A DNA stretch of 64,000 nucleotides, taken from Pseudomonadota bacterium (GTDB lineage Bacteria > Myxococcota_A > UBA796 > SXON01). A program made the position numbers and the translations under genes. Positions 28,617 through 57,386 of the stretch are shown piece by piece. Numbering within the stretch: the first letter of the stretch is position 1; each line of letters starts with the position of its first letter. A model generated the notes under the pieces. That model was not told the origin of the DNA and ran no database searches. It worked only from the letters and a program-made list of their open reading frames with translations. The DNA is taken from NCBI GenBank assembly GCA_005778355.1, contig SXON01000246.1:22454-86453 (forward strand). The letters are read 5' to 3'.

Positions 28617-30725
28617 TCAGTCCGCGGCGCCGTCGCAGTCGGCATCGACTCCGTCGGCCAAGCTGTCGTTCGCACCCGGCTTCACGCGCCACAGGCGGTC
28701 GTTGCAGTCCGTCCCGCCGTAGGCGATGGCGTCGAAGCCGTCGTGATCGGCGTCGTGGTCGGAGCCCCCGGAGCAGTCGCTGTCGACGCCGTCGTAGAAC
28801 GGATCGTTACGGCCGGGGTTCACGGTCGGCGTGGAGTCATCACAATCGGTGCCCGAGAAGGCCGCGTCGTCGTAGCCGTCGCGGTCGCCGTCGTAGTCGG
28901 AGTCGCCACCGCAGTCCGCGTCGGTGCCGTCGTAGAGCACGTCCGGTGCGCCAGGCCACACCGAGGAGAGCAGGTCGTCGCAGTCGGCGCCGCCGAAGTC
29001 GGCCGACGGGAAGCCGTCGCCGTCGAGGTCGAAGTCGTTGGCACCATCGCAATCAGCGTCGAGGCCGTCGTAGGGGTAGTCCACCACGCTCGGGTTCACC
29101 TCGGCGTTGATGTCGTCGCAGTCGCTGCCGCCGTGCTCCAGCGCGTCGATGCCGTCGCCGTCTTGGTCGTAGTCGCTCGCGCCGTCGCAATCGCTGTCGC
29201 GCCCGTCGTACCAGAGCTCACGGCTCTCGCAGCAGTCGTCGAAGGCCAGCCAGTCGGACGAGGAGCCCGCCATCGCGTCGGCCCGCTCTTCCAGCGCAGA
29301 CATCAACTCGGCGAGGATGTCGGCGTCGACCGTCTCGTAGATGTCGGTGGCCTCGAACCGGTCGGTCGACAGGTCGTACACCGAGTAACTGCGGCAGGAG
29401 TTGAACCCGGTGTTGGCCACGAGCTTGTAGTCGCCCACGCGCACCGCCCCCGATCCCGTGGTCGCGCCGGTGCTGGCGCTCGTGCTGAACTTCTCGGTCC
29501 AGTTGGCCGTGCGGCTACCTTCGCCACCCACGAGGATCTCGGCCACCGAGATCGAGTCCTGGCCGATGTCGGTGCCCACCTCGTAGCCGCCGGTGTCGAG
29601 CCCGAGGAGATCGACGAGGGTGGCGTACAGGTCGACCACGTTGACCAGAGCGCCGGAGCTGCCGCCCACGTCGATGGTGTAGTCGACGTCCGTGGGCACC
29701 GCGCCGCCGGCCTCGATGGCGTCGGCCAGAGCCGCGCCGTCGGCGAAGATCAGCGGAATGCGGGCGCCCGACTCGAAGACCGAGCCCTTGCCACGCCCAT
29801 CATCGAAGGAGCCCTCGGACACCTGGCGAGGCGTGCCGTTGTCGCCCATGAACACCACCAGCGTGGCATCGGGGTCGGGGAGCCCGGCGAGGAGCTCGGC
29901 GATGGCGTCGTCGAGGCACTCGACCGCGAAGTCGTAGTCGGTGGCATCGTCGCCGCTCGGGGTGCCACCGCAGGCGGTGACCGCGTCGGCCCAGGATGTG
30001 CCCGACCGGCCACCATTGCTCGTCGAATGCGGGAGGTTGTAGGAAACCACGGCGAAGGCCCGGTTGCCCACGGAGTCCTGATCGGTCAGCCACTCGAGCG
30101 CGGACACCGTGGTTTCATCGGTAACCGAGGCGAGCTCATCGCTCGCCATCGTGCTGTACCCAGAGGACATGCTCGAGTCGGCCAGAGACTCGACGTACAG
30201 CCACTCCTCGTAGCTGCGCGGCTCGCCGCCGGTGCTACCGCGGAAGGTGCCGAAGCCGGTGCGGATGGGGTACTCGGCGCGGTCGGAGGCCGCCGTCGAG
30301 GCGCTGCGAGGCGTGTCGGAGAGCACGCCCACGTGCCACTTGCCGAAAAGGGCCGTCTCCATCCCCTCTTGCTCGGCAAGCTGCTGGATGGTGACCGCCT
30401 CTTCGCTCAGCGAGGGCGAGGCGCTGGTGGCCACCGCGTCGCCCACGCCATTCCGGTAGGCAAACTGGCCGGAGTAGAGAGCGGCGCGCGATGGGGAGCA
30501 AACGGGCATCGCCCACGCATCGGTGAAACGCACGCCCGCGTCGGCGAGCAAGTCGATGTTCGGGGTGGACGGGCGCGTTTCCGAGGGGTTCGCCACGTCG
30601 CCGGCGTAGGCGCTCACCTTGTCGCTACCGAGGTCGTCGGCGATGATGACGACCACGTGACGGTACTCGGCCGCCTCGACGGGCGCGGCGAGGAACACGG
30701 TCAGCAACGAGCTGGGGAGGAGCAC
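28617..30725 (-). CDS. secreted sulfatase fused to C-terminal MopE-like metal-binding repeats
   Basis: HVVVIIADDLGSDKVSAY...PVCSPSRAALYSGQFAYRNG (CxPSR sulfatase signature)...LFGKWHVG; C-terminal DxDxDG/DCDD/PGA repeats. Confidence 0.92.
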   Translation of the reverse strand: MLLPSSLLTVFLAAPVEAAEYRHVVVIIADDLGSDKVSAYAGDVANPSETRPSTPNIDLLADAGVRFTDAWAMPVCSPSRAALYSGQFAYRNGVGDAVATSASPSLSEEAVTIQQLAEQEGMETALFGKWHVGVLSDTPRSASTAASDRAEYPIRTGFGTFRGSTGGEPRSYEEWLYVESLADSSMSSGYSTMASDELASVTDETTVSALEWLTDQDSVGNRAFAVVSYNLPHSTSNGGRSGTSWADAVTACGGTPSGDDATDYDFAVECLDDAIAELLAGLPDPDATLVVFMGDNGTPRQVSEGSFDDGRGKGSVFESGARIPLIFADGAALADAIEAGGAVPTDVDYTIDVGGSSGALVNVVDLYATLVDLLGLDTGGYEVGTDIGQDSISVAEILVGGEGSRTANWTEKFSTSASTGATTGSGAVRVGDYKLVANTGFNSCRSYSVYDLSTDRFEATDIYETVDADILAELMSALEERADAMAGSSSDWLAFDDCCESRELWYDGRDSDCDGASDYDQDGDGIDALEHGGSDCDDINAEVNPSVVDYPYDGLDADCDGANDFDLDGDGFPSADFGGADCDDLLSSVWPGAPDVLYDGTDADCGGDSDYDGDRDGYDDAAFSGTDCDDSTPTVNPGRNDPFYDGVDSDCSGGSDHDADHDGFDAIAYGGTDCNDRLWRVKPGANDSLADGVDADCDGAAD
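28620..29213 (-). repeat. about 4.3 tandem ~45-aa MopE-like acidic repeats within the sulfatase gene
   Basis: YDGxDxDCxGxxDxDxDGDGxxxxxxGGxDCDDxxxxVxPGxxD recurring four times plus a partial copy. Confidence 0.88.
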
Positions 30726-30768
30726 TTGACAAGGCTACCACAACTGCGATCCCAGAATGTAGTTGTCG

Positions 30769-32349
30769 CTACTGTCCTGGAGGCTCACCCAACAGTTTTA
30801 GCGCCCGCGATCCGATAGCGCTCCCAGGTTCTACCTGGAGCAGGGCGCGGAAGGCGGTCACGGCCTCGCCGCGGCGCCCCGCCGCAGCGTGAAGCCGACC
30901 CAGCGCCAGGTGGTTCCCGGGCACGTCGCCGTCGCAAGCGGCGAGTTGCGCGTACTCGGCGACAACGGCGTCGTAGTCTTGCTTGACGAGCGATACGTCG
31001 CCGCCGGCGGTGACGAAGGCCTCGACAGCGGCGAAGCGCACCGCGCGCACCGCGTCGCGGAGGAGCGCGCCGGGGATCGCCGGGGCACCCCACGCGCCGA
31101 GCGTGGTGGCGACCTCGGCCCGGACCAGCGCGTCGGGGTCACGAGAAAGCGAGCCGAGGCGTGTCAACTCGGGCCCGGACGGCGCGTAACGGCGGAGGTA
31201 CGCGGCCGCAGTGGCGCGCGCGAAGGCGGGCGCGCCCGTGCCGGCGACGATTTGCATCAGGCTCTCCCGGGCCGACTCGTCGCCCACGCGGGCCGCGCGG
31301 AAGACCTCGACGTTGGCCTCGCGGCCAGGAACCTTGAAGCCGTGGTCGTGACGCACATGAACGCCCATGAACGTGGCGGTGGGCATATGGCAGCCCACAC
31401 AATCGGCCTCCACACCGTGGTTCTCGGTGGCGGGCGGCGCGCTGTGACAGGCGCGACAGCGATCATTCCCCGGAGGCGCGCCCCCGTGCGGATCGTGGCA
31501 GTCCGTGCAGCGCACGCCCTTGGCCGCCATCTTCGACTGGGCCCAGGATCCCCATTCGAAGCCCTCGACGGGCGCGACGAGTCGACCATCGGCGCCGAAT
31601 GCCGTGGAATCTCCCACCGCCGGCCGGAACTGGTCGAGGAAGGCCTTGCCCGGAGCGGCGTCGCAGGCGAGCGGACGCCGGAGGCTGTGGCAGCCGCTGC
31701 ACGTATCGAGCTGCGCTCGGGCGTCGCGAGCGGCCCGCGGAGGACTGCCGTGGCAGGCCACGCAGCCGACGCCCTCGGCCAACCACTCGCTCGCGTAGCT
31801 GTGCGTGCCGATGTCAAAACCCTTGTCAAACCCAGTGACATGGCAGGTCGCGCACTGGTGGTTCCAGGTGCCGGCCAGCCCGGCCCAGTGGAGCTCTTCC
31901 CCTGGATCGGCCTCGGCGCCGTCGGGCGCGGGGTCGAACCACTGGCCCCGTGCCACGTCGAAGGCGATCGGCGCGACGAGAAGCCTCCCACCGGGGCCGT
32001 CCAGCAGGTACTGCTGCAGCGGCGTCACGCCGATGGTGGCGATGACAGCGTACTGACTGTCTCCCGCGCCGTCCTTGACGCGGACGACTGGCTGACCGTC
32101 GGCCAACTCCACGGTGGCGACGAGCTCCCCCCCCTGCACGCGCTGGCCCGCGAAGCGGGAGGGGTCCACCACCGTCGACTGCGCCCGGGCGTGGTGAGAC
32201 TCGGCCCAGCGCGCCGCCTCCTCCGCGTGACAACTCGCGCAGTCCGCATGGGTGTCGGCGTGGGGATCGGCGGCCGCCGGCCCCGGGGGAGGCGCCGACT
32301 CATCGCACGCGAGGGCGAAGGCGATGGCGCTAGTGGCGAGCCGACGCAT
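30769..32349 (-). CDS. multiheme c-type cytochrome (7 CxxCH), lipoprotein, with HEAT/TPR-like C-terminus
   Basis: CASCH, CATCH, CVACH, CSGCH, CTDCH, CRACH, CVGCH; N-term MRRLATSAIAFALAC. Confidence 0.9.
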   Translation of the reverse strand: MRRLATSAIAFALACDESAPPPGPAAADPHADTHADCASCHAEEAARWAESHHARAQSTVVDPSRFAGQRVQGGELVATVELADGQPVVRVKDGAGDSQYAVIATIGVTPLQQYLLDGPGGRLLVAPIAFDVARGQWFDPAPDGAEADPGEELHWAGLAGTWNHQCATCHVTGFDKGFDIGTHSYASEWLAEGVGCVACHGSPPRAARDARAQLDTCSGCHSLRRPLACDAAPGKAFLDQFRPAVGDSTAFGADGRLVAPVEGFEWGSWAQSKMAAKGVRCTDCHDPHGGAPPGNDRCRACHSAPPATENHGVEADCVGCHMPTATFMGVHVRHDHGFKVPGREANVEVFRAARVGDESARESLMQIVAGTGAPAFARATAAAYLRRYAPSGPELTRLGSLSRDPDALVRAEVATTLGAWGAPAIPGALLRDAVRAVRFAAVEAFVTAGGDVSLVKQDYDAVVAEYAQLAACDGDVPGNHLALGRLHAAAGRRGEAVTAFRALLQVEPGSAIGSRALKLLGEPPGQ

Positions 32350-32361
32350 CGCCTCCGCGTT

Positions 32362-33690
32362 CTACCGCAACTCCACCTGTCCCGGGAAGGCGTCGTGGTG
32401 CTCCACGTAGCCAAAGGCACTGCCCATGGGCAGCGAAGTCGACGAGCCGAGGGTGCCGTTCGAATCAAAGCCGTCGAGCAGGCCCGAGGTCGACCAGGAC
32501 ACGATCGTCGAGTCGTTGTCGGGCACCTGGACGTCGCCCATGGCGTACACGAAGACCGGCGGATCGTGCGCCATCTCGTTGACCAGCGTGGCAGCCTGCG
32601 CGCCAGCGTCGAGCGCCAAGGTGATCACGCGCGAAGTCTGGTCGCTCCCCTCGCGATTGTCGTGGAGGCGAATGCCCCCGTCGACGAAGTCCCAGCCGTG
32701 CTGGTTCTGAAAGCTGGCATCGGCGCCGAACGACCACTCGGAGAGGAACCCCCCGATCCGGTCGAGGGTCTCGCCGCTGTCGCGCTCGACCACCGCGATG
32801 CTGCTGACATCGCGGAGCCCGATCCACCAGTTGTCGGTGGCCTCGTCGTGACGCAAGACGTTGCCACGCACCGAGTTCTTCTCGGGTTCGGCTTCGTTGT
32901 AGTTATCGCCCCAGTACCCGTCACGGGAGTCCCAGAGCTCGGTGACGGCGCCATTCGGGCTCACCTCGGCGATCCCGGCGCCGAGGCCCACGTTCGCCGA
33001 GTCACCGAGCATATAGCTGGTGATGATCCCCAACGTGCCGTCGTCGAGCACCATGAAGTCGTGACTCGGATGCAACTCGCCACTGACGCGCTCGAACTCG
33101 CCCGTCCAGCTGATGCGCGCCACGTAGGCGTCGGTGCCGCCGTCGCTGTCTTGCTCCCAGAGGATGTACACGCCTCCGCCGTCGGGAGCCACGCGCGTGC
33201 GGTACAGGACGCCAGGATCAGTGAGGTAATACCAACGGATATTGCCTTCCTCGTCCACCACGAGCGAGGCGCCAGCGCCCCCCATGATCGAGGTGGCGAC
33301 GATGCCGTCCCACGGTGCCGTCCCGGTGGTGTCCAGCTCGGGTAGCGTGGTGGGCAGGGGCTCGGTGTCGAAGGTGCATGAGGCCAGCTCGTTGCCATCG
33401 GCGTCGACCAACTTCGCGAAATTGACGGCGTCGGGGGTCACGCCCACCAGCGTGGCCTGCTGCTCGCCGTCGCCGCGCCAGTCGGTGGCCAAGAGCGCAC
33501 CGCGGTTGTCGTGGATCTCGAGCCGAGTGTCCCGGTCGGACTGGCCCGGCCACGAGGCCTCCGCCACGGTGACCACGTCGGCAGAGGGCGCAATGGCGAC
33601 CCCGCCCTCGCCGCATTCGACCTCCGGAATGACGCCATCCTCGGCACCGGTGCAACCGACGGCCGCCAACAGTCCACTCAGAATCTGCAT
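32362..33690 (-). CDS. arylsulfotransferase (ASST)-family-like lipoprotein
   Basis: MQILSGLLAAVGC; VVDEEGNIRWYYLTDP...ELHPSHDFMVLDDGT...FQNQHGWDFVDGGIRLHDN propeller-like repeats with conserved His. Confidence 0.68.
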   Translation of the reverse strand: MQILSGLLAAVGCTGAEDGVIPEVECGEGGVAIAPSADVVTVAEASWPGQSDRDTRLEIHDNRGALLATDWRGDGEQQATLVGVTPDAVNFAKLVDADGNELASCTFDTEPLPTTLPELDTTGTAPWDGIVATSIMGGAGASLVVDEEGNIRWYYLTDPGVLYRTRVAPDGGGVYILWEQDSDGGTDAYVARISWTGEFERVSGELHPSHDFMVLDDGTLGIITSYMLGDSANVGLGAGIAEVSPNGAVTELWDSRDGYWGDNYNEAEPEKNSVRGNVLRHDEATDNWWIGLRDVSSIAVVERDSGETLDRIGGFLSEWSFGADASFQNQHGWDFVDGGIRLHDNREGSDQTSRVITLALDAGAQAATLVNEMAHDPPVFVYAMGDVQVPDNDSTIVSWSTSGLLDGFDSNGTLGSSTSLPMGSAFGYVEHHDAFPGQVELR

Positions 33691-33798
33691 CGTCTTACCA
33701 TAGCCCAGCCTGTGGGGAGGCGCCCTCAGGGGTGGCGGCCCCGCCATCGGTCGAGTGGCTGATAGGCCGCTCGCCCGACCTTGAGTAAACCCTGGGTC

Positions 33799-35388
33799 AT
33801 GACGACCCCGGCCAGCCCGCTCTCCGGAGGCCCGCTTCCTGGCGGTGATCTGGGCACCATCGTCGAGGCCTTCCTCGCGCTGGATGGCCGACCCGGCGCG
33901 TGGATGCAGGTCGGTCCTGCGGGCACCCCGCGCGCCTACACCGGCAGCCAGGTGGTGGAGCTGGCCCGCCGCTGGCGGCGCGCCCTGCAGGAGGCCGGCG
34001 TGCGCCCCGGAAGTCGCGTGGCGATCCTGCTGCCGAACGACGAACGCTTCGTCGGTGCCTTCTTCGGCACGCTACTCGCCGGTGCCGCCGCGGTGCCTCT
34101 GGCCTGGCCGGCGACCACCCTCGACGCGCGCCGCGTGGTGGCCCTGCGGCCGCTCGTGGAGGCCGCCGACGCCGCGGTGATCGTCACCGACGAGGCGCTG
34201 GCCGACCACTTCCCCGTGCGCGCGGTCACGCATCCCGACAGCGTGGCGGTGGGCCACGACGTGCTGCCCCGCCACGGCGACACCGCCTTCATCCAGTACA
34301 CCAGCGGCAGCCTCGGCCGCCCCAAGGGCGCGGTCATCACCCACCGGGCTGCCGCCGCCTGCGTGCGCGCCATGGGGCACGCGGTGGGGGCATCCGAGGC
34401 CGACATCGGAGTGAGCTGGCTCCCGCTCTTCCACGACATGGGCCTCGTGGGCGGCCTGCTCACCCCCGTGGCCTTCCGCTTCCCGATTACCCTCCTCTCC
34501 CCGGGCGAGTTCCTGCTTCACCCCGGGCGCTGGCTCGACCGGGCCGCCGCCGAGGGCATCACCACTGCCGCCGCGCCCGACTTCGCCTGGCGCCTTTGCA
34601 CCCGCCGGGTCGCTTCCGTGCGCGGCAGCCTCAATTCCTGGCGCGTGGCCATCTCCGGCGCCGAGCCCGTCCATCGCACCACTCTGGACGCCTTCATCGC
34701 CAAGTTCGGCGCACACGGGTTTGGTCCCGACACCTTCCGCCCCGCCTACGGCCTCGCGGAGAACACCCTCGCCGCCTGCATCTACGACCCCTCCCGGCCG
34801 GGCGACGACGCCACTGTACACGGTCGCCACATCCCGAGCGTGGGCGCCCCGATCGTGGGCAACGAGATTCGAGTGGTCGATGCCGAGGGGCATGATTGTC
34901 TGGAGGGACAGGAGGGAGAGATCTGCCTCCGGAGCGCCTCTTTGATGAGCGGCTACTTCCGCGACGAGAGTGGGACGGCGGCGGCGCTGGTCGACGGCTG
35001 GCTCCGCACCGGCGACCTGGGGGTGATCACCGGGGGACAGCTCCACGTCTCCGGTCGCGCCAAGGAGTTGGTCATCCAGAACGGCTCCAAGTTCCACCCC
35101 TACGACATCGAGCGCGTGGCCACCGACGCCGTCGATGCCACCGTCGCCGGCGCGGCCGCCTTCGTGCTCCCCACGGACGAGGGCGAGATCCTCGTGCTCG
35201 CCGCCGAGGTGCCGGCGAGCAAGGCCGAGGGCGCGGATCGGCGCATCCGCGGCGCCGTCCTCGAGGCGCTGGGCGTGCGCATCGACCGCATCGTGGTGGT
35301 GGCCCCGGGCGCCCTGCCCCGAACCTCCAGCGGGAAGATTCGCCGCGTCGATGTCCCGCAGTTCGTCGAGGGCAGCCATGGCGCCTGA
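33799..35388 (+). CDS. fatty acyl-AMP ligase (FAAL)-like AMP-binding enzyme
   Basis: FIQYTSGSLGRPKGAVITH, SWLPLFHDMGLVGGLLTPV, ISGAEPVHRTTLDAFIAKFGAHGF, FRPAYGLAENTLAACIY, RTGDLG, SGKIRR. Alternative TTG start at 33781. Confidence 0.9.
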   Translation: MTTPASPLSGGPLPGGDLGTIVEAFLALDGRPGAWMQVGPAGTPRAYTGSQVVELARRWRRALQEAGVRPGSRVAILLPNDERFVGAFFGTLLAGAAAVPLAWPATTLDARRVVALRPLVEAADAAVIVTDEALADHFPVRAVTHPDSVAVGHDVLPRHGDTAFIQYTSGSLGRPKGAVITHRAAAACVRAMGHAVGASEADIGVSWLPLFHDMGLVGGLLTPVAFRFPITLLSPGEFLLHPGRWLDRAAAEGITTAAAPDFAWRLCTRRVASVRGSLNSWRVAISGAEPVHRTTLDAFIAKFGAHGFGPDTFRPAYGLAENTLAACIYDPSRPGDDATVHGRHIPSVGAPIVGNEIRVVDAEGHDCLEGQEGEICLRSASLMSGYFRDESGTAAALVDGWLRTGDLGVITGGQLHVSGRAKELVIQNGSKFHPYDIERVATDAVDATVAGAAAFVLPTDEGEILVLAAEVPASKAEGADRRIRGAVLEALGVRIDRIVVVAPGALPRTSSGKIRRVDVPQFVEGSHGA

Positions 35389-36379
35389 GGTGCTCGTGCT
35401 CGGGAGCAACGGCTTCATCGGGCTGCACGTGGTCGACGCGCTGCGCGCCGAGAGCGTGGAACCGCGCTGCGGGCGTCGTCCCCGGTCGAACGTACTCGGC
35501 CTACGCAGCCGCAAGGCGCGGATGGTCCACGCCGATCTCGACGATCCCGCCTCGCTCGACGCCGCGATGCAGGGCGTCGACACCGTGGTGCATCTCGCCG
35601 GGCACTACCCGCGCACGAGCACCGACCGCCCCGGCACCCTCGCCCTCGGCGAACGACAGAGCCGAGCGGTGATCGCGGCGGCACACCGGTCGCGCGTGTC
35701 GCGACTGGTGTACGTGTCGTCGACCGCCACGGTCGCCCCGCGCCGCGACGGTCCGTCGAGCGAGAACGACCGCTTCAAGGCCGCTCCCGGCCACGGCCTC
35801 TACCACGATCTCAAGTGGACGATGGAGTCGATCTTCGAGGGCGCGGCCGATCTCGATGTCCGAATCGCGCTCCCCGCAGGTTGCATCGGCCCGGGCGACC
35901 TCCGGCTCGGCACCTCGGCGCTGATCGTGGCCCTGGCCCGGGGCGACGACCCCCCTCACCCCGACGGTATCGTGTCGCTGGTCGACCCCCGCGACGCGGG
36001 GCAGGGCATCGCCCGGATGGCGCTGCGCGCGAATGCGCCGCGGCGGGTGATCCTGTCGCAGTCGAGCGTTCCACTCCACGGCCTGCTCAGCGTCCTGTCG
36101 CGACGCTACGGGGTGAAGGAACCCTGCGCGCCCATGGCGGCGAAGGTGGCCAAGGCTCTGGCCGACGACGCCGAGCATCAGGCCGTCGCGACCCACACGC
36201 GACCGCGAATGGTGCGCGAGATCGTCGACCTGGTGATCCACGGGGTGCCCCTCGCCGGCGACCTCGCCGAGCAGAGCCTCGGCGTTCGCTACCGCCCTTT
36301 CTCCGACTCCCTCGCCGACTTCGAAGCCTGGGCCTCCCGCCTCGGTTTCTTCCCCACGCCTCCGGAGGCTCGCCCGTGA
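35378..36379 (+). CDS. NAD(P)-dependent epimerase/dehydratase
   Basis: EVLVLGSNGFIGLHVVDALRAE; VSRLVYVSSTATVAP; 11-nt overlap with the upstream ligase. Confidence 0.82.
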   Translation: MAPEVLVLGSNGFIGLHVVDALRAESVEPRCGRRPRSNVLGLRSRKARMVHADLDDPASLDAAMQGVDTVVHLAGHYPRTSTDRPGTLALGERQSRAVIAAAHRSRVSRLVYVSSTATVAPRRDGPSSENDRFKAAPGHGLYHDLKWTMESIFEGAADLDVRIALPAGCIGPGDLRLGTSALIVALARGDDPPHPDGIVSLVDPRDAGQGIARMALRANAPRRVILSQSSVPLHGLLSVLSRRYGVKEPCAPMAAKVAKALADDAEHQAVATHTRPRMVREIVDLVIHGVPLAGDLAEQSLGVRYRPFSDSLADFEAWASRLGFFPTPPEARP

Positions 36380-36624
36380 TCGCTCCCGCAACCGAAGCCC
36401 GCATCTACAAGATCCTCAGCGACCTCTCGGCCGTGCCCCAGCAGCAAATCAAGCGCGGTGATCGGCTGCGCGAAGACCTCGGTCTCGACTCGGTTTCCTC
36501 CATGGAACTGGTGTCGATGCTCAGCGAGGAGTTCTCCATCGACGTGGAGCTGGAAGAGGCCGTCCGCATCACCGACGTGGCCGGGCTCCTGGCCCTGGCG
36601 GAGAACCGGATTGGCGATGCTTGA
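36376..36624 (+). CDS. acyl carrier protein
   Basis: 83 codons; LREDLGLDSVSSMELVSMLSEEFSIDVELEEAVRITDVAGL (DSxxxxEL phosphopantetheine site). Confidence 0.93.
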   Translation: MIAPATEARIYKILSDLSAVPQQQIKRGDRLREDLGLDSVSSMELVSMLSEEFSIDVELEEAVRITDVAGLLALAENRIGDA

Positions 36625-38077
36625 CAGCGCCACGGTGCCGTTGGCCGTCGAACGCCCGTCGCTGGCGGCGCTCGCGCCCCCGGGCGAGCGCGAGGTGGTC
36701 GAGGCGATCGTCGATCCCCTCGAGCGTTTCTGTCGCGACCGCATCGATCCTCGGGACAACGACCATCGCAAGTCGATCCCCACGGCCGTGCTCGACGGCT
36801 TGCGCGAGATGGGCCTCTTCGGCCTGTCGCTGCCGGAGACGCACGGCGGCGCCGGCCTCGGCCTCTGGGCCACCGGCAGCATCGCGGCGATCATCGCGCG
36901 CCGCGATCGCTCGGTGGCCACGACCCTCGGCCTGCACCTCGGTCTCGGCACCCGGGGACTGGTTCGCTACGGCAGCGCCGAGCAGCAAGATCGTTATCTG
37001 CCGCGCCTCGCGAGCGGCGAGATCCTCGCCGCCTTCGCCACCACCGAGCCGGCCGCGGGGAGCGACCTCAGCGCGCTCCGCTGCACGTTGTCGGAGACCG
37101 GGGGCGCCCTGTCACTCCGCGGCCAGAAGTGCTTCGTCACCAATGGCGGTCTCGCCTCGCTCTTCACCGTGTCGACCCGTAGCCCCGGTCTCGGGGGCGC
37201 GCGCCGGGGCCAGACCCTCGTGCTCGTCGAGCGCGACGACGTGGGCGTGTGTGTGGGGGCGGAGGAAGACAAGCTCGGCCTTCGCGCCTCGTCCACCACG
37301 ATGCTCGACTTCGACGACGTGGCGCTCGGCGCCGGCCGCATCCTCGGCCCCGTGGGACAAGGCGCCCACTGTCTCCAACACATCCTCGCCTACGGCCGCA
37401 CGGTCATGGCCTTTGGGTGCACCGGCACCGCCCACGCCGCCCTCGCCGCCACGCGAACCCACTGCTCGGTGCGCGTGCAGTTCGGCCGCACGCTCGACCA
37501 GCTCGCCATGGTGCGCGAGCAGCTCGCCGACATGGCCGCCAAGCTCTTCGCCATCGAGGCGCTGGTGCGCTGGGCGGCGAGCGACGAGTCGAAGCTCGAG
37601 TGGCGCTCGCTCGCGGCGAAGGTGCTGGCGAGCGACCTCAGCGGCGAGATCGTCGACACCGCGCTCCAGTTGCATGGGGGCTACGGCTTCATCGAGGAGA
37701 CCGGCATCGCGCTCCTCGCCCGCGACGCGCGCATCACGCGCATCTTCGAGGGGGCCAACGACGTGCTCCGCGTGCACCGCGGCCTGTTTGCCGTGGGACA
37801 GGCTCCCGAGGGGCCCCAGGCCGCCCGCTGTCGCGACGCTATCGCCGAGGCCCGCGCCCGCCTCGGTGCGCGACTGCTCGGCGACCACGTGACGCTGCAT
37901 CGGCTCGGCAGCATGGCGATGCTCGCCGATGCCTCCACCGCCACGTTGCAACGCGCCGACGACGAGGGCACCCCCGAGGCCCGCGCGCTCGCCGCTCGCT
38001 GGCTCCGCCTGTCGCTCAGCTACGCGCCCACCGTGGCCGACGACACCACCGCGCTCTGTCTTGGAGGCGAGTCGTGA
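36617..38077 (+). CDS. acyl-CoA dehydrogenase family protein
   Basis: FATTEPAAGSDLSALRC, GQKCFVTNGGLA, VQFGRTLDQLAMVREQLADM, LQLHGGYGFIEETGIALLARDARITRIFEGANDVLRVH. Confidence 0.93.
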   Translation: MLDSATVPLAVERPSLAALAPPGEREVVEAIVDPLERFCRDRIDPRDNDHRKSIPTAVLDGLREMGLFGLSLPETHGGAGLGLWATGSIAAIIARRDRSVATTLGLHLGLGTRGLVRYGSAEQQDRYLPRLASGEILAAFATTEPAAGSDLSALRCTLSETGGALSLRGQKCFVTNGGLASLFTVSTRSPGLGGARRGQTLVLVERDDVGVCVGAEEDKLGLRASSTTMLDFDDVALGAGRILGPVGQGAHCLQHILAYGRTVMAFGCTGTAHAALAATRTHCSVRVQFGRTLDQLAMVREQLADMAAKLFAIEALVRWAASDESKLEWRSLAAKVLASDLSGEIVDTALQLHGGYGFIEETGIALLARDARITRIFEGANDVLRVHRGLFAVGQAPEGPQAARCRDAIAEARARLGARLLGDHVTLHRLGSMAMLADASTATLQRADDEGTPEARALAARWLRLSLSYAPTVADDTTALCLGGES

Positions 38078-39366
38078 AAGTTCTCTTCGTATACCCAGGC
38101 TTCCAACGCCACGCCGCGAGCAACCCCGAGCTGCTCGAGTACGTGCCCATGAAGGAGTACCTCGGCTCCCCTTCCCTCGGACTCGCCGCGATCGCTGGCG
38201 CCACCCCGAGGGACTGGGCGGTGGAGTACCGCGACGACCGGCTGCAACCGGCCGACCGGCCCACCGACGCCGACGTCGTCGCGATGAGCTTCTTCACGCC
38301 GGCGGCCTCGCGGGCGCTGCAGCTCGCCGACTACTTCCGGGCGCAGGGCAAGAAGGTCGTCGCCGGCGGCATCTTCCCCACGATGATGCCCGACGAGGTG
38401 CAGCCTCACGTCGACGCGGTGGTGGTGGGCGAGGGCGAGCTCTTGTGGCCGGGGCTGTTGCGCGACGTGCAGAAGGGCGAGCTGCGGCCTCGCTACGTGG
38501 CCGGTGCCGTCGATGTCGACGAGCTGCCCCCGCCCGATCTGTCGATCTACTTCGGCAGCGAGAACGAGGAGTTCCGCCCCGACGACTACCCCTTGCAGGT
38601 GTCGCGAGGCTGTCCCCTCACGTGCCATGCCTGCGCGCTCCCCGGGACCATGGGGCCGAAGGCCCGCGCTCTACCCATGTCACACGTCCTGGCGCAGGCC
38701 CGCCAGATTGCCGAGGGCGGAAGGCGCGCGTGTTTGACCGAGGACACCGGGTGGCTCCCAGGGACAGCCGGCAGCAAGCGCATGATCGAGCTGCTCAAGC
38801 ACCTGGTGGAGAACGGGCGCCCGCTCACCGTGTCGTACATCGGCATCTCGATGCCGATGATCCTCGCGGCGCCGTCGAACTTCCTCAAGCTCGCCAAAGA
38901 CGCCGGGGTCGACATGTTCTACCTGGTGGGCGGCTTCGACCCGGTGACGATGAACGCCTTTTCCGGCGAGAACCCGCGCGCGTACCTGCGAGCGGTCGAC
39001 GCGATCAAGAAGAGCTGGGACCACGGGATCGAGCCTTACACGAGCTTCCTCCTCGGCAACGAGGGTGACGACGAGGGCACCGTCGACCGGATGCTCAGCT
39101 TCGCCACCGAGAGCGGCATCAAGAAGGCCGAGTTCGCGGTCTTCACGCCCTACCCGGGCACGCCGAGCTGGCACAAGCTCGTGGCGGAAGACCGGATCCT
39201 CACCCGCGACTGGTCGAAGTACAACGACGCAAACGTGGTGTTCAAACCGAACAAGATGTCTCCCGAGGCCCTTCACCAGGGCTACCTCCGCCTCTGGCGC
39301 GAGTTCTACGCCGCCCGCCCCGAAGTCCGTGAGCGCTCCGAGTACGAGCGCACCATCCAGTTCTGA
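38074..39366 (+). CDS. B12-binding-domain radical SAM protein
   Basis: N-terminal VKVLFVYPGFQ...DVVAMSFFTPAASRALQLADYFRAQGKKVVAGGIFPTMMPDE...VVVGEGE; SRGCPLTCHAC (Cx3Cx2C). Confidence 0.92.
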   Translation: MKVLFVYPGFQRHAASNPELLEYVPMKEYLGSPSLGLAAIAGATPRDWAVEYRDDRLQPADRPTDADVVAMSFFTPAASRALQLADYFRAQGKKVVAGGIFPTMMPDEVQPHVDAVVVGEGELLWPGLLRDVQKGELRPRYVAGAVDVDELPPPDLSIYFGSENEEFRPDDYPLQVSRGCPLTCHACALPGTMGPKARALPMSHVLAQARQIAEGGRRACLTEDTGWLPGTAGSKRMIELLKHLVENGRPLTVSYIGISMPMILAAPSNFLKLAKDAGVDMFYLVGGFDPVTMNAFSGENPRAYLRAVDAIKKSWDHGIEPYTSFLLGNEGDDEGTVDRMLSFATESGIKKAEFAVFTPYPGTPSWHKLVAEDRILTRDWSKYNDANVVFKPNKMSPEALHQGYLRLWREFYAARPEVRERSEYERTIQF

Positions 39367-39372
39367 GGACGT

Positions 39373-40584
39373 ATGGAACCGACTGCTCTCTACCGCCTGC
39401 CCTGGTCGCTCAACGACAACGTCTTGTCGTGGCTCGAGCCCACCAAGAAGTGCAATATCTACTGCGAAGGTTGTTACTCGACCAACGAGGCCAACAGCCA
39501 CAAGTCACTCAAGGACATCCGCTGCGATCTCGACGTCTTCACGTCGCAACGCAAGATGGATAGCGTGTCGATCGCCGGTGGCGACCCGCTCACCCACCCC
39601 GAGATCGTCGAGATCGTCCGCATCGTCAAACAAGACTACGGGCTCAAGCCGGTGGTCAACACCAACGGCCACGCGATGTCGCCCCAGGTGTTGCGCGAGC
39701 TGAAGAAAGCCGGGCTTCACGGGGTGACGTTCCACGTCGATAGCTCACAATCGCGCCCCGGCCACAAGCGGCGCAGCAACCTCGAGCTCAACGAGCTGCG
39801 CCTGCACTTCGCGAAGATGGTGGCCGAGGAGGGCGGCATCTCCTGCGCCTTCAACAGCACCGTCTTCCGCGACACGATGCACGAGGTGCCCGAGATGATC
39901 CGCTGGGCGCAGGCCCACATGGACATCGTGCACTCGATGGTCTTCATCTTGTTCCGCACCGGCCGGAGCCAGGAGTTCGACTACTGGGCGCAAGACGAGA
40001 AGGTGGGGCTCGACCAGCTCCCCTACTACGACCAGGAGCAGAACCCCACGCCGCTCACGACGCCCGAGCTCTTCGCCGTGATCAAGAAGGAGATCCCCGA
40101 CTTCGAGGCGAGCGCCTTCCTCGGCGGCACCCGCGACCCGAACTCCTTCAAGTGGACGCTGGCCACGCGGGTCGGCAACAGCGACCGCATCTACGGCTAC
40201 GTGGGCCCGCGGTTCATGGAGGCGGTGCAGACCGGGCATCACGTGATGAAGGGCACCTACCTGGCCTACGCGCACCCCTTCCTGCTCAAGCAGGGGCGCG
40301 CCACGATGGGCCTCTTCGCGCCCATCGACCCGAAGATGCGCCAGGCCCTCGCGCGATACACGCGCGACGTCGCGACGCACCCTTCGCGGGCGCTGAAGCG
40401 CCTGCACATGCAGAGCATCGCTTTCATCCAGCCGATCGACATGATGGCCGACGGAGAGGCCAACATGTGTGACGGCTGTCCCGACATGACCGTCCACGAC
40501 GGACAGCTCGTGTGGAGCTGCCGTTTGGACGAGCTCAAGCGTCACGGAACCTTTCTCCGATGTGTCCCGAGGTCAGCATGTTGA
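39373..40584 (+). CDS. radical SAM protein with Cys-containing (SPASM-like?) C-terminus
   Basis: WLEPTKKCNIYCEGCYSTNEA (Cx3Cx2C), VSIAGGDPLTHPEI, C-term MCDGCPDMTVHDGQLVWSCRLDELKRHGTFLRC. Confidence 0.9.
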   Translation: MEPTALYRLPWSLNDNVLSWLEPTKKCNIYCEGCYSTNEANSHKSLKDIRCDLDVFTSQRKMDSVSIAGGDPLTHPEIVEIVRIVKQDYGLKPVVNTNGHAMSPQVLRELKKAGLHGVTFHVDSSQSRPGHKRRSNLELNELRLHFAKMVAEEGGISCAFNSTVFRDTMHEVPEMIRWAQAHMDIVHSMVFILFRTGRSQEFDYWAQDEKVGLDQLPYYDQEQNPTPLTTPELFAVIKKEIPDFEASAFLGGTRDPNSFKWTLATRVGNSDRIYGYVGPRFMEAVQTGHHVMKGTYLAYAHPFLLKQGRATMGLFAPIDPKMRQALARYTRDVATHPSRALKRLHMQSIAFIQPIDMMADGEANMCDGCPDMTVHDGQLVWSCRLDELKRHGTFLRCVPRSAC

Positions 40585-41144
40585 ACAGCCACGATCCGAA
40601 TCGTCGCCCCGCGCCCGCCCTTGGGAGTAAGATCCCGTGGGAGGCACGGGTGCCGCGAAAGACCATCGCTCTCGTCACCGACGCCACCGGCAAGGTGGAG
40701 AGCGCTTCCCCCAGCGCCGACGCCACGCTTGGCAAGGTGGTGGGCCAGCGGTGTGTCGACATTGTCGATGCCCGCGGGCTCGACGGCACCACGGTCTGCA
40801 CCCAGACCTGCGCCGCCTCCTGCACCGATGGCACCCCGGCGGTGGAGGTCCGCGTGAAGGGCAAGACCTGGCGCATGTACTGCGCCGGGGCCGGCCCCCA
40901 CCGCACCGTCACGCTAGCGCCCACCGGTGAGGACATCGACGGCCTGCCGCCGCTCTCGCCGCGCGAGAAAGAAGTGCTCATCCTGGTGGCCGCGGGGCTC
41001 ACCAACGCCCGCATCGCGCGCCGCCTCGACCTGTCGCGCGCCACCGTGCGCACGCACATCGAGCACATCCTCTCCAAGCTGCGCGTGCGTTCTCGCTCGG
41101 CGGCCGTGGCCCGGGCGATGGCCTCGGGGATGCTCGAGGGTTGA
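40560..41144 (+). CDS. LuxR-family transcriptional regulator with N-terminal Cys-rich PAS-like region
   Basis: LSPREKEVLILVAAGLTNARIARRLDLSRATVRTHIEHILSKLRVRSRSAAVARAM (GerE/LuxR HTH). Alternative start 40578. Confidence 0.88.
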   Translation: MCPEVSMLNSHDPNRRPAPALGSKIPWEARVPRKTIALVTDATGKVESASPSADATLGKVVGQRCVDIVDARGLDGTTVCTQTCAASCTDGTPAVEVRVKGKTWRMYCAGAGPHRTVTLAPTGEDIDGLPPLSPREKEVLILVAAGLTNARIARRLDLSRATVRTHIEHILSKLRVRSRSAAVARAMASGMLEG

Positions 41145-41206
41145 GCATCAGGCGCGACCGGTGCAAGCCGGTTGACTCGGGCGTCCGAGGCGCTACGCTA
41201 GCCGGC

Positions 41207-41560
41207 ATGAGCGCGACCGCTGCCGACCTCGCCGCGAAGCTGCGCATGCGGCAGGCCACGGCACGCCAGCGTGACGCGGTCCTCACGGCGGGCCGGCTCG
41301 GCGGGGTCGATCAGGCTGCGGCCTTGCTCCGGGAGCGTTTCGGCGCCAGCCGCGTCGTCTTGATCGGGTCGCTCGCCCGAGAGGCGAGCGTCTCGGACAG
41401 CGATGTGGATCTCGTTGTTGTCGGCGTTCCGATGCGGGACCACACGAGCGCGGTGCTCGAACTGGAACGGCTCTTCGCTTGCCCGGTCGACTTGATCCAC
41501 CTCGAGTCGGCACACCCGGCCATGCGCGCCACCATTGAGCAAGAAGGGCGCGAGTTGTGA
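41207..41560 (+). CDS. MNT-type minimal nucleotidyltransferase (MntA-like antitoxin)
   Basis: VVLIGSLAREASVSDSDVDLVVV = GSx10DxD. Confidence 0.82.
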   Translation: MSATAADLAAKLRMRQATARQRDAVLTAGRLGGVDQAAALLRERFGASRVVLIGSLAREASVSDSDVDLVVVGVPMRDHTSAVLELERLFACPVDLIHLESAHPAMRATIEQEGREL

Positions 41561-42048
41561 GCACGGGCCTCGAACGACTGCGGGCACAGATCCTCGCGGA
41601 TCGCCAGAGCCTCGCGGTTCAGATTGCCGAGTTGGCGGAAGTCGAAAATTGTGTCGATCCCGGGCAAACCGCTCGCGCGGCCTGGGCGCTGCACCATGGG
41701 TACTCGGCCGTCGAGGCGATGCTGGAACGCGTGGCCCGAGCCATCGAGGGCGGCGCCCCGACCGGGCCCGAGTGGCACCGGGAGCTGCTCGACGCCGCGG
41801 CGCTCGAACTCGGCGGCCTGCGACCAGCGATCTTGTCGCGACCCACCGTCGGGCACCTCCATCACCTCCGTGCATTCCGTCACTTCGCTCGCCACGGCTA
41901 TGGCTCCGCGTTCGACCCGGTGCTCGTCCAACAATGCGCGGCGCACCTTCACGACTGCGCGGCGGAACTCGCCGCCGACCTCGACCGCTTCGACGCGTTC
42001 CTCGCCGAGGTCATCCGGCGGGCGTCCACCACGTCGAACTCCGCTTGA
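41557..42048 (+). CDS. HEPN-domain protein (HepT-like toxin)
   Basis: Helical protein; LRAFRHFARHGYGSAFD contains Rx4HxY; GTGA overlap with the MNT gene. Confidence 0.8.
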   Translation: MSTGLERLRAQILADRQSLAVQIAELAEVENCVDPGQTARAAWALHHGYSAVEAMLERVARAIEGGAPTGPEWHRELLDAAALELGGLRPAILSRPTVGHLHHLRAFRHFARHGYGSAFDPVLVQQCAAHLHDCAAELAADLDRFDAFLAEVIRRASTTSNSA

Positions 42049-54298: not shown

Positions 54299-55063
54299 TC
54301 AACTCCACCGCCGGTGCAACCACAACCACCCGTGCGGCCGGGCCCGGATCTGTTCCTCGTAGAACCTGTTCATCGCCGCCGTCCGCTCCTCCGCCGTCCC
54401 CCCCACCACCAGAGGCGCGATGTGCAGCCGGTGCCGACCCACCCCCTCGCGCCACTGCCAGGCCCCGTACACCGGACGCCCCGTCTTGAGCGAGGCCACG
54501 GCGGCGCCGAGCGAGGTGCGGGCTGGGCGGCCGAGAAAGGGCAGCGCCGGCCCCTTGTTGTGTCGCTGGTCCTGGATGAAGTACACGCTCCGACCGGACT
54601 CGAGCTGGGCGTACGCGTCTTTCATCGTCGCCCCGGTTTCCATGCGCACCACCCCGTGGGCGTCGCGCAAGTCGGCGAGCAGTCTCGCGACAAAGGGATC
54701 CTTCGGCGTCCGCAGGAAGATCGCCAGCGGGAACGCCTCCGCCCAGGCCAGGAGCGCCACGTCCCAGGCGCCACCGTGGCCGGCGATGACGATCGCGCCG
54801 CGCACCGCCTCCGCGCCGGTCACCTCGATCTGCAGGCGTTCGAACTGGAATAGCTCCACGTAGCCCAGCACCAGGTCGTGCATCATGCAACGCAACGTGG
54901 GCCCCGGGGGCACGTCCGGCAGGGCCTGCCGCAGGTTGTCGATGGCCTCGCGGCGCCGCAAGGGCAACACCGTCCACCAGAGCCATGCAAGCACCCAGCC
55001 GAGGCCGCTGGCCAGCCCGAGTGGCAGTTTCCGCAGCATCGCCACGGCCAGCGCCTTCACCAC
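54299..55063 (-). CDS. lpxL: LpxL/HtrB-family lipid A acyltransferase-like protein
   Basis: IVIAGHGGAWDVALL (Hx4D), FLRTPKDPFVARLLADLRDAHGVVRMETGATMKDAYAQLESGRSVYFIQDQRHNKGPALPFLGRPA. Confidence 0.88.
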   Translation of the reverse strand: MVKALAVAMLRKLPLGLASGLGWVLAWLWWTVLPLRRREAIDNLRQALPDVPPGPTLRCMMHDLVLGYVELFQFERLQIEVTGAEAVRGAIVIAGHGGAWDVALLAWAEAFPLAIFLRTPKDPFVARLLADLRDAHGVVRMETGATMKDAYAQLESGRSVYFIQDQRHNKGPALPFLGRPARTSLGAAVASLKTGRPVYGAWQWREGVGRHRLHIAPLVVGGTAEERTAAMNRFYEEQIRARPHGWLWLHRRWS

Positions 55064-57084
55064 CGCTCCAGTCGCGCGGCCAGCGCCGCCTCGCCGGTCA
55101 GCACCTCAACCTCCACCACCAGCGCCCAGGCCCGCGCGTCGGCCGGGAGGCGCGCCGCGTCTTTCTCGGTGGTCACCACGAGGTGATCGTCGGTCCACGC
55201 CTCGATCGACTGCAGGTCGTGCCAGGTGAAATCGTGATGGTCCTCGAAGACCATCGTCCGCTCCACCCGCACGCCGAGCTGCCGCAGTTGACGGAAGAAA
55301 CCATCCGGACGCGCGATGCCGGCGAGCGCGATGGCCGGACGCGCGGGGATGGCGGACAGGGGGAGTAGCTCGCCGCGGCGGCGCCAACCCACGGGACGAT
55401 ACCGGGCCTCCACGAAGATGGCGTCACGACGTGCCAGCCCGCGCACCCAGCCGGGGACTGCACCGTGGTTGCACCACACCACGTCGGCCTTCGCGAGCCA
55501 CGAGCGCGGCAGCCGCCGCGTGCCCACCGGGATCGGCCCGCCGCCATCGGGCCACCGGGCGTCGATCACCACCACCTCCAGGTCGCGGGCCACTGCACCG
55601 TACTGGAGGCCATCGTCGAGCACCGCCACCCGCGCGCCTGCCTTGGCGGCGGCCTCGATACCCGCGAGGCGATCGGGCGCCGAGCACACCGCCTGCCCCC
55701 GCCGGGCGAGCATCGCCAGCTCGTCGCCGAGGTCGGTGGCCTCGCCCGACATGCGGATGTCATCACCCTTGCGACGCCCGTAGCCCCGCGACACGACGAC
55801 GCTCCCGTGTACCCGCGACGCGAGCCACGCAGCGACCGGCGTTTTCCCCGAGCCGCCGGCGGAGAGACCGCCCACGGAGATGACCGGGATCGGCGCCTGC
55901 TTCAGGGGCCGTGGACGCAGTAGCGCCCCCGCCATCCAGACGGGAACGAGCGGCCAGAGCCAGGGCCTGAGCGGACGCTCGTCCGGGATCGCGGCCGACA
56001 AGGCCGGCGACAGCGCTTCAACCACCGCCGAGAGCCCTGGTGACACCGCTGAGACCGTCCGCGGGCGGTGCAACGCCGTCACCAGCGCCGTGGCGAGGGT
56101 CGACTCGCGGGCCACCACCGCGTCTACCCCCTCCCAGGCCGCCGCGTTGCCCTCCACGTGGGGCCCGCGCACCACCGGCAGGCCCGCTGCCACAGGCTCC
56201 GCTGGCGAGTGTCCACCCACCCCAGGGAACAGAGTACCTCCAACATAAGCGGCCCGCGCCACGCCGTAGAGCGTCGACAGCTCGCCGATGGTGTCGAGCA
56301 GCACCACCTCGCAGCCCTCGGGCACGCGCGGCCCGAACTGCGAACGACGGGCGAGCCTGAACCCCCGCGCCGCCAGCTCCGCGAGCAGCCCCGCCACCGC
56401 CTCGAATCGAGCCGGGTCGCGCGGCGCCAGCACCAGCAAGGGTCGTTGCGGCAACGACCACCAGGCCTCGACCAGCGCCCGCTCCTCGCCCTCGTGGGTG
56501 GAGCCCGCCACCAGCGCCTCGCCCGTCCACGTGAAGGTGGGCGCACGCCGTGCAGGCTGGCGCTTGAGGTCCTCAGCCGGCACCACCACCGCCATGCCCT
56601 GTCGCAGGTAGGCGAGAAGACCGGGAACGCGAGCTAGTCGCGACATCCCCGCGGCCTCGCGCGGTGAGAGCAAGGTGACCGGGATGCCGCGCATCCGACA
56701 GGCGAGGATGAGCGCCGGCCAGAACTCGGCCTCCACCAGGACCAGCGCCCGGGGACGCACCCGGTCGAGCCAGGCGGTGACACAGGGCCAAGCGTCGAGC
56801 GGGAGGGAGGTGGTCCAGGCCACGCCGGTGTCTTGCGGTCGTGCCGTGTCACTCGTGCAGGTACGCACTACCGGCAAGGGCAAGACCGGGGCCAGCGCCT
56901 CGACGATCTTCCCCTCCCCCAGCGATGCGGCGTGCATCCAGAGCGCCCCCGGTTCCACCTCGGGTGTCACGAGGCCCAGCCGCTCCCGCGCGTGGTCGCG
57001 CAGCCGCGGGTGCACCCAGGCGAGCAGCACCACCAGGGGGTAGGCGACGATCCCCAGCGCCACGTAGAGCCAGGCGAGGATCAA
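55057..57084 (-). CDS. waaA-lpxK: fused KdtA/WaaA (Kdo transferase) - LpxK (tetraacyldisaccharide 4'-kinase)
   Basis: N-half: LWMHAASLGEGKIVEAL, VLVEAEFWPALI, VAGSTHEGEERALV, DTIGELSTLYGVARAAYVGGTLFPGVGGHSPAEPVAAGLPVVRGPH. C-half: VISVGGLSAGGSGKTPVAAWL, VVVSRGYGRRKGDD, VAVLDDGLQYGAVARDLEVVVID. One uninterrupted frame, TTG start at 57084. Confidence 0.9.
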   Translation of the reverse strand: MILAWLYVALGIVAYPLVVLLAWVHPRLRDHARERLGLVTPEVEPGALWMHAASLGEGKIVEALAPVLPLPVVRTCTSDTARPQDTGVAWTTSLPLDAWPCVTAWLDRVRPRALVLVEAEFWPALILACRMRGIPVTLLSPREAAGMSRLARVPGLLAYLRQGMAVVVPAEDLKRQPARRAPTFTWTGEALVAGSTHEGEERALVEAWWSLPQRPLLVLAPRDPARFEAVAGLLAELAARGFRLARRSQFGPRVPEGCEVVLLDTIGELSTLYGVARAAYVGGTLFPGVGGHSPAEPVAAGLPVVRGPHVEGNAAAWEGVDAVVARESTLATALVTALHRPRTVSAVSPGLSAVVEALSPALSAAIPDERPLRPWLWPLVPVWMAGALLRPRPLKQAPIPVISVGGLSAGGSGKTPVAAWLASRVHGSVVVSRGYGRRKGDDIRMSGEATDLGDELAMLARRGQAVCSAPDRLAGIEAAAKAGARVAVLDDGLQYGAVARDLEVVVIDARWPDGGGPIPVGTRRLPRSWLAKADVVWCNHGAVPGWVRGLARRDAIFVEARYRPVGWRRRGELLPLSAIPARPAIALAGIARPDGFFRQLRQLGVRVERTMVFEDHHDFTWHDLQSIEAWTDDHLVVTTEKDAARLPADARAWALVVEVEVLTGEAALAARLERW

Positions 57085-57386
57085 GTCGGCACCCAGCCGA
57101 ATCGAGCCATGTCCACCCGATCGCCCACGAAGCTGACACCCTCGCGCTCGAGCAAACCCCGCTGCACCACCGCCCGGACCGGGTCGCCCTTGGTCGCGAG
57201 CGTGCCGTCGCTGTGGATCACCCGCTGCCAGGGCACGTCGGTGTCGCCCTCGAGCGCCGCCATCGCGTAGCCCACCTGTCGCGCCGCGCCCGGCGAGCCA
57301 AGCACAGTCGCGACTTGACCGTAGCCCATCACCCGTCCCTCGGGGATATCCCTGACAAAGGCCCACACGCGCTGTCGGAAGTTCAT
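57081..57386 (-). CDS. alkyltransferase-like (ATL) protein, MGMT C-terminal fold without catalytic Cys
   Basis: FRQRVWAFVRDIPEGRVMGYGQVATVLGSPGAARQVGYAM...VPWQRVIHSDGTLA (PWQRV in place of PCHRV). Confidence 0.9.
   Translation of the reverse strand: MNFRQRVWAFVRDIPEGRVMGYGQVATVLGSPGAARQVGYAMAALEGDTDVPWQRVIHSDGTLATKGDPVRAVVQRGLLEREGVSFVGDRVDMARFGWVPT

What the first reader, a model, noticed from the sequence alone, without database searches (positions are those of the whole stretch)
33781..41144. Seven-gene coupled operon: FAAL, SDR, ACP, acyl-CoA dehydrogenase, B12-radical SAM, radical SAM, LuxR: candidate novel acyl-modifying biosynthetic system
Seen: six enzyme/carrier genes and a regulator on + strand with junctions of 11-nt overlap (35378-35388), GTGA 4-nt (36376-36379), 8-nt (36617-36624), GTGA 4-nt (38074-38077), 6-nt gap (39367-39372) and a regulator start inside the previous ORF. 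Knowledge: FAALs load fatty acids onto ACPs as acyl-adenylates; ACADs desaturate acyl thioesters; B12-radical SAM enzymes methylate or rearrange unactivated carbons. Inference: an ACP-bound fatty acyl chain is activated, desaturated, remodelled by two radical SAM enzymes, then reduced or epimerised by the SDR to a specialised lipid or signal. There is no PKS, NRPS or condensing enzyme in the operon, so it does not match a PKS/NRPS, ole (olefin) or standard fatty-acid cluster that I recognise.
Basis: partly seen in the sequence, partly recalled or inferred. Interest (0 to 1): 0.8.

Follow-up and report, generated by a model that had tools for sequence, protein, structure and literature searches.

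The report
Conserved radical-enzyme acyl-tailoring gene cassette
In this myxobacterium-like genome, seven tightly packed genes form a cassette whose five-gene core recurs across the phylum and looks built to load an acid onto a small carrier protein and rework it with radical enzymes, a pathway I found described in no paper I could search and whose product is unknown.

Summary
The seven genes and all reported junctions are real; two start codons need correcting. The seven-gene set is not unique to this genome. A five-gene core, FAAL-SDR-ACP-ACAD-B12rSAM, is complete in 21 genomes examined (this one included) from several families of one phylum (Myxococcota by record titles), nearly always in this order and translationally coupled, while flanking genes change. 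Catalytic residues are kept down to about 35% identity. The second radical SAM gene joins the core in several arrangements and co-occurs with it even when unlinked (15 genomes with both, 1.6 expected; p = 2e-14, not corrected for phylogeny); in other phyla it stands alone. Some relatives have a FabF-type condensing enzyme beside the core, and diverged B12rSAM relatives head ketosynthase clusters, so a carrier-bound acyl substrate is well supported. Reactions, substrate and product are not. The FAAL has a shortened FAAL-specific insertion. No paper in the searched open library describes the set; the closest known module is the FAAL-ACAD-ACP lipid-initiation set of daptomycin-type lipopeptides, here without NRPS and with radical SAM enzymes. 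Verdict: real, conserved, apparently undescribed cassette; new variant of a known kind.

The parts
33799..35388 (+). FAAL-type AMP ligase (P0001; the ORF from TTG 33781 includes this)
   Evidence: AMP-binding 199 bits; best NCBIfam model is a fatty acyl-AMP ligase, below cut-off; best PDB hits are FAALs 3pbk and 7r7g; T174-S175-G176 and Lys519 invariant in 18 homologs; FAAL-specific insertion about 17 aa shorter than in six sister cassettes
35378..36379 (+). Extended SDR of the HpnA/3-beta-HSD/OleD type (P0002)
   Evidence: HpnA 139.5 bits, below cut-off 367.65; GxxGxxG, Tyr142 and Lys146 invariant in 22 homologs
36376..36624 (+). Free-standing acyl carrier protein (P0003)
   Evidence: PP-binding 41 bits; D38-S39 invariant in 21 homologs
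36617..38077 (+). Acyl-CoA dehydrogenase-family flavoprotein (P0004), with a C-terminal extension of about 100 aa beyond the ACAD domains
   Evidence: three ACAD Pfam domains; VLCAD best PDB hit 1.6e-71; catalytic Glu378 in invariant FEGAND in 23 homologs
38074..39366 (+). Radical SAM enzyme with cobalamin-binding domain (P0005)
   Evidence: B12-binding domain over cut-off; C180xxxC184xxC187; invariant IQF C-terminus in 26 homologs; AlphaFold model pLDDT 79, nearest folds AprD4, MgmA, TsrM, CysS, TokK
39373..40584 (+). Second radical SAM enzyme (P0006), 403 aa, with C-terminal CxxC...C auxiliary-cluster-like motif
   Evidence: Radical_SAM 62 bits; Cys 27/31/34 and 366/369/383 invariant in 62 homologs; model pLDDT 95.9, nearest fold GDGT-MAS/Tes at TM 0.57-0.59
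40578..41144 (+). LuxR/GerE-type regulator with an N-terminal domain carrying four conserved Cys (P0007)
   Evidence: GerE 68 bits; four Cys aligned across 16 cassette- or rSAM-linked sequences

Best explanation
A dedicated acyl-tailoring pathway on a free-standing ACP. The FAAL-type ligase adenylates a carboxylic acid and loads it on the ACP [inferred from family and neighbours]. While it is thioester-bound, the ACAD removes two hydrogens, most likely C-alpha/C-beta [inferred], and the cobalamin radical SAM enzyme alkylates or rearranges an unactivated carbon of the chain, most likely by C-methylation [inferred; weakest step]. The HpnA-like SDR reduces or oxidises a carbonyl or hydroxyl on the chain [inferred]. 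The second radical SAM enzyme acts on the same substrate or on the lipid made from it [inferred from linkage and co-occurrence]. A four-Cys LuxR regulator, perhaps redox- or metal-sensing, controls the operon in this order [inferred]. No thioesterase or NRPS is present, so release is probably by an acyltransferase elsewhere or by the SDR. Shown: genes, coupling, conservation, catalytic residues, co-occurrence. Not shown: substrate, reactions, product.
For: Five-gene core complete in 21 genomes including this one, with near-fixed order and 4-nt ACAD>B12rSAM coupling in most. Flanking genes not conserved, so the cassette is the unit. FAAL, SDR, ACAD and B12rSAM distance matrices correlate at r 0.92-0.95 over 17 loci. 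Catalytic residues invariant. Rearranged loci keep the members together: L152 and L182 swap ACAD and B12rSAM; L074 has rSAM before FAAL; L151 has rSAM on the other strand nearby. Acyl-ACP substrate: FabF-type ketosynthase adjoining the FAAL in L146 and L152 and one gene away in L144; B12rSAM relatives at about 37% directly upstream of ketosynthase genes in L156 and L157; nearest folds include CysS and TokK, solved with pantetheinylated substrates. B12rSAM/rSAM co-occurrence 15 genomes observed against 1.6 expected.
Against: No family model over an equivalog cut-off fixes a function for any of the enzymes. The FAAL lacks part of the FAAL-specific insertion, so CoA loading or a non-fatty acid cannot be excluded. 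The B12rSAM model's nearest fold is AprD4, a diol dehydratase, not a methylase, and its rSAM domain also matches BchE and HpnJ, so methylation is unsure. L151 has lost one of the three radical SAM cysteines. L178 lacks the SDR near the others and L141 lacks a detectable FAAL in its upstream 4 kb.
Confidence: 0.6

Rival explanations
1. The carried acid is not a fatty acid but a small or aromatic acid, handled as in prolyl-carrier dehydrogenase (RedW) or CysS systems; 'FAAL' is a name by descent only.
For: FAAL-specific insertion site is 23-27 residues in the window's order and L152 against 43-44 in sister cassettes; ACAD matches RedW and PigA models as well as VLCAD; CysS and TokK, which use non-fatty pantetheinyl substrates, are among the nearest folds of the B12rSAM.
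Against: Best ligase hits are FAALs; best ACAD structure is very-long-chain ACAD; FabF-type ketosynthases adjoin the cassette in relatives; several sister cassettes keep a full-length insertion.
Confidence: 0.2
2. A lipid-initiation module that feeds an NRPS or PKS encoded elsewhere, as in friulimicin, taromycin or laspartomycin.
For: FAAL, ACP and ACAD are the same three parts as in those clusters (PMC9113097).
Against: No NRPS/PKS seen beside the cassettes: the largest neighbours scanned are a protein kinase and a restriction enzyme, and flanks are not conserved. The known modules as described in that review carry no SDR or radical SAM enzyme.
Confidence: 0.12
3. Membrane-lipid chain coupling: the second radical SAM is a Tes-like enzyme that joins lipid tails, and the core makes branched or unsaturated chains for it.
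For: Nearest solved fold of P0006 is GDGT-MAS/Tes and Tes is one of its two best sequence models; Myxococcota are among candidate brGDGT producers (PMC11868695).
Against: 61 bits against a cut-off of 450; TM only 0.57-0.59; many other radical SAM proteins in these genomes score higher against the Tes model than P0006; the N-terminal region of about 85 aa is absent; P0006 stands alone in Ignavibacteria, Gemmatimonadota and others.
Confidence: 0.1
4. The second radical SAM gene is a broad-distribution housekeeping or maturase enzyme that only happens to lie next to the core.
For: Found in many phyla without conserved neighbours and without the B12rSAM there; only some cassettes are linked to it.
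Against: In the order all 12 genomes that have it also have the B12rSAM, and none of the 47 genomes without B12rSAM has it; linkage in several different arrangements.
Confidence: 0.15

Closest known systems
FAAL-ACAD-ACP lipid-initiation module of cyclic lipopeptides (taromycin, friulimicin, laspartomycin, malacidin; PMC9113097)
   Same: A FAAL, a free-standing ACP and an ACAD-family dehydrogenase encoded together; the dehydrogenase desaturates the lipid starter.
   Different: No NRPS next to it; an SDR, a cobalamin-domain radical SAM and a second radical SAM are integral; gene order differs.
Carrier-bound-substrate cobalamin radical SAM methylases (CysS, TokK)
   Same: Same overall architecture: cobalamin-binding Rossmann domain, radical SAM barrel, C-terminal domain; act on pantetheinyl thioesters.
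   Different: 16-17% identity; no such NCBIfam model over cut-off; nearest fold is AprD4; the reaction is unknown.
rSAM_ladder_B12 (TIGR04072) lipid biosynthesis B12/radical SAM proteins
   Same: 21 of 26 cassette proteins match the model at E<=1e-8.
   Different: Far below cut-off (35.9 against 360 bits for P0005); no ketosynthase genes in the window's cassette.
Hopanoid-associated sugar epimerase HpnA
   Same: Closest curated model for the SDR.
   Different: 139.5 against 367.65 bits cut-off; no hopanoid genes in the cassette.
GDGT-MAS / tetraether synthase Tes
   Same: Nearest fold and one of the best sequence models for the second radical SAM enzyme.
   Different: Below cut-off, moderate TM, lacks the N-terminal region; only three C-terminal cysteines are invariant.

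Membership tests
Fatty acyl-AMP ligase (FAAL) | AMP-binding fold with YTSGS-type motif and C-terminal catalytic Lys | tested here: met
   T174-S175-G176 and K519 invariant in 18 homologs
Fatty acyl-AMP ligase (FAAL) | Full-length FAAL-specific insertion | tested here: not met
   25-27 residues at the site in the window's order against 43-44 in six sister cassettes; gaps against 3pbk and 7r7g
Fatty acyl-AMP ligase (FAAL) | Loads ACP, not CoA | not testable with these tools
   needs an enzyme assay; the adjacent ACP is indirect support
Acyl carrier protein | PP-binding fold with D-S phosphopantetheine site | tested here: met
Acyl-CoA dehydrogenase superfamily | Three ACAD domains and catalytic Glu at the VLCAD/SCAD position | tested here: met
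   Glu378 in FEGAND invariant
Extended SDR | GxxGxxG and YxxxK | tested here: met
HpnA | Score over NCBIfam cut-off | tested here: not met
   139.5 against 367.65
Cobalamin-dependent radical SAM enzyme | CxxxCxxC plus B12-binding domain over cut-off | tested here: met
Cobalamin-dependent radical SAM enzyme | Actually binds cobalamin and methylates | not testable with these tools
   AprD4, the nearest fold, acts as a dehydratase
rSAM_ladder_B12 (TIGR04072) | Score over equivalog cut-off | tested here: not met
   35.9 against 360 for P0005
Tetraether synthase Tes / GDGT-MAS | Score over NF045702 cut-off and N-terminal region | tested here: not met
   61 against 450; the match starts at model position 85
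Lipopeptide lipid-initiation module | FAAL, ACP and ACAD next to an NRPS with a starter condensation domain | tested here: not met
   no NRPS among the window genes scanned; none among scanned large neighbours in relatives
ole (olefin) cluster | OleA thiolase with OleB, OleC and OleD | tested here: not met
   only an OleD-like SDR at 31 against 580 bits; no thiolase in the operon

The most novel reading that the evidence does not exclude
The cassette makes a previously unknown class of radical-modified acyl lipid or lipid-derived metabolite in Myxococcota: an ACP-bound chain that is desaturated, C-alkylated, cyclised or rearranged by a cobalamin radical SAM enzyme and then processed by a second radical SAM enzyme of a phylum-crossing family with no assigned function.
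Probability: 0.35. Interest if true: 0.75.

Novelty: new variant of a known kind. Interest (0 to 1): 0.6.

Why it matters
It is a compact, strongly conserved pathway with no assigned product. A B12 radical SAM acting on an ACP-bound chain would be a new route to branched, cyclic or rearranged acyl groups, relevant to bacterial lipid biomarkers and to natural-product starter units. It also gives a first genomic context for the second radical SAM family, a widespread orphan (Ignavibacteria, Gemmatimonadota, Planctomycetota, KSB1, Solirubrobacterales and others) otherwise found alone.

Tried and rejected
Naming the second radical SAM as Tes: rejected because it scores far below the cut-off and other radical SAM proteins in the same genomes score higher. 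Hopanoid pathway because the SDR resembles HpnA: rejected, below cut-off and no hopanoid genes in the cassette. NRPS/PKS starter module: not supported, no such gene seen beside the cassettes. Looking for conserved neighbours of the second radical SAM outside the phylum: none. Literature searches with FAAL plus radical SAM plus ACP terms found no matching system. The rSAM/B12rSAM Fisher test is not corrected for phylogeny; outside the order it is weaker (3 shared, p = 0.004).
Full report
Two starts should be moved: the FAAL to ATG 33799, and the LuxR to ATG 40578, where ATGTTGA overlaps the radical SAM stop by 7 nt. The window lies in contig C241 of a 6.6 Mb, 252-contig assembly. Record titles of near relatives are 'Deltaproteobacteria', 'Myxococcota', 'Polyangiaceae', 'Sandaracinaceae' and 'Archangium' MAGs, so I treat the phylum as Myxococcota; that is an inference.

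What the proteins are. Pfam and NCBIfam confirm the domains, but no enzyme reaches an equivalog cut-off. The ligase is closest to FAALs in sequence yet carries 25-27 residues where six sister cassettes carry 43-44 at the FAAL-specific insertion. The SDR is HpnA-like with an intact GxxGxxG and YxxxK. The ACP has an invariant D-S site. The ACAD keeps the catalytic Glu in FEGAND. The B12rSAM has a B12-binding domain over cut-off and CxxxCxxC; its AlphaFold model (pLDDT 79, from only nine sequences) is nearest to AprD4 (TM 0.74-0.76), then MgmA, TsrM, CysS and TokK. The second radical SAM model is excellent (pLDDT 95.9) but its nearest fold, GDGT-MAS/Tes, is only moderately close (TM 0.57-0.59). 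The regulator joins a LuxR-type HTH to an N-terminal domain with four Cys conserved in 16 aligned sequences, perhaps a redox or metal sensor.

It is a conserved cassette. Around orthologs of the second radical SAM, five other genomes of the family or order carry the set FAAL-SDR-ACP-ACAD-B12rSAM-rSAM in the same order, and a sixth has a split version. Starting from the B12rSAM instead, the five-gene core is found in further families of the phylum, its proteins at roughly 30-60% identity, including a genome titled uncultured Archangium (L177) and a complete 10,754,065-bp chromosome (L151). That size equals the 10.754 Mb published for Sandaracinus defensii MSr10575 (PMC9306752), so this is probably that strain; the match is by size only. 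In all, 21 genomes including this one hold the five genes together: the window, L022, L024, L028, L029, L031, L130, L131, L133, L134, L136, L144, L145, L146, L150 (its ACP was found by eye), L151, L152, L155, L177, L179 and L181. Others are cut by contig ends or rearranged. Junctions are overlaps almost everywhere, and ACAD>B12rSAM is a 4-nt overlap in 18 of 20. Flanking genes are not conserved. Pairwise distances of four core proteins correlate at r = 0.92-0.95, as expected if they travel together.

The second radical SAM. In the 379-genome phylum sample, 28 genomes have a B12rSAM ortholog, 22 have the second radical SAM and 15 have both (1.6 expected, p = 1.8e-14). In the order, all 12 genomes with the second radical SAM have the B12rSAM. 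In several they lie on different contigs, so co-occurrence is not only linkage. The test ignores phylogeny; outside the order it rests on three shared genomes (p = 0.004). Linkage comes in different arrangements: 3' end (window), 5' end (L074, a Myxococcaceae MAG), on the other strand nearby (L151), and upstream with a LuxR between (L052). Yet the same protein is found at about 50% identity in Ignavibacteria, Gemmatimonadota, Planctomycetota, KSB1, Solirubrobacterales and others, without conserved neighbours and without a B12rSAM ortholog (7 of 47 genomes had a match, all reached through delta- or myxobacterial records). It therefore has a wider role of its own and is probably a recruited partner here.

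Why an ACP-bound acyl substrate. Besides the FAAL and ACP themselves, three relatives carry a FabF-type ketosynthase at the cassette: in L152 directly upstream of the FAAL on the same strand, in L146 divergent from it, in L144 one gene away. More diverged B12rSAM relatives (about 37%) lie directly upstream of ketosynthase genes in L156 and L157; the L157 run also holds an ACP. CysS and TokK, among the nearest folds, have structures with pantetheinylated substrates.

Mechanism, with limits. Loading by the ligase, alpha/beta dehydrogenation by the ACAD, radical modification by the B12rSAM and redox by the SDR are inferences from families. The B12rSAM step is the least certain: its best matches include methylases (MgmA, CysS) and non-methylases (AprD4, BchE, HpnJ). 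Release is unexplained: no thioesterase, NRPS or acyltransferase is in the operon.

Comparison with the known. In cyclic lipopeptides, ACAD genes lie between FAAL and ACP genes and desaturate the starter lipid (PMC9113097). The cassette shares these three parts, but it has no NRPS and adds an SDR and radical SAM enzymes. Searches of the open-access library for FAAL, ACP and radical SAM together found no such system; subscription papers were not covered. I rate it a new variant of a known kind: known enzyme families in a combination that appears undescribed.

Caveats. Most relatives are MAGs. Gene starts in relatives were chosen by script. The L151 Cys-to-Arg change has not been checked against another assembly.

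Noticed in passing
window 41141-42048 (+): An MNT-type nucleotidyltransferase followed by a HepT-like protein: a probable MNT/HepT toxin-antitoxin pair directly downstream of the operon.
   Followed up: partly
window 28617-33747 (-): Arylsulfotransferase-like protein divergent from the FAAL, next to a multihaem cytochrome-like gene (30769-32349) and a sulfatase with a MopE Cu-binding motif (28617-30725).
   Followed up: no
window 54299-59095 (-): Lipid A acyltransferase, a 769-aa ORF matching both Kdo transferase and LpxK, and an ABC exporter in one run. The apparent KdtA-LpxK fusion was not checked against relatives.
   Followed up: no
L151 8362-9657: The B12rSAM of the probable Sandaracinus defensii genome reads CxxxRxxC instead of CxxxCxxC, although the other cassette genes look intact.
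   Followed up: partly
L157 7333-15944; L156 2891-6702: A B12 radical SAM directly upstream of consecutive ketosynthase genes; in L157 two double-ketosynthase ORFs, an ACP and two more ketosynthase ORFs.
   Followed up: partly
L144, L145, L142, L143 (genomes G128, G297): These genomes carry two B12rSAM copies, one in the cassette and one solo copy elsewhere.
   Followed up: no
L052/L030: Two LuxR genes of the four-Cys type flank the second radical SAM gene before SDR-ACP-ACAD.
   Followed up: no
window genome G000: 71 radical SAM domain matches in a 6.6 Mb genome.
   Followed up: no
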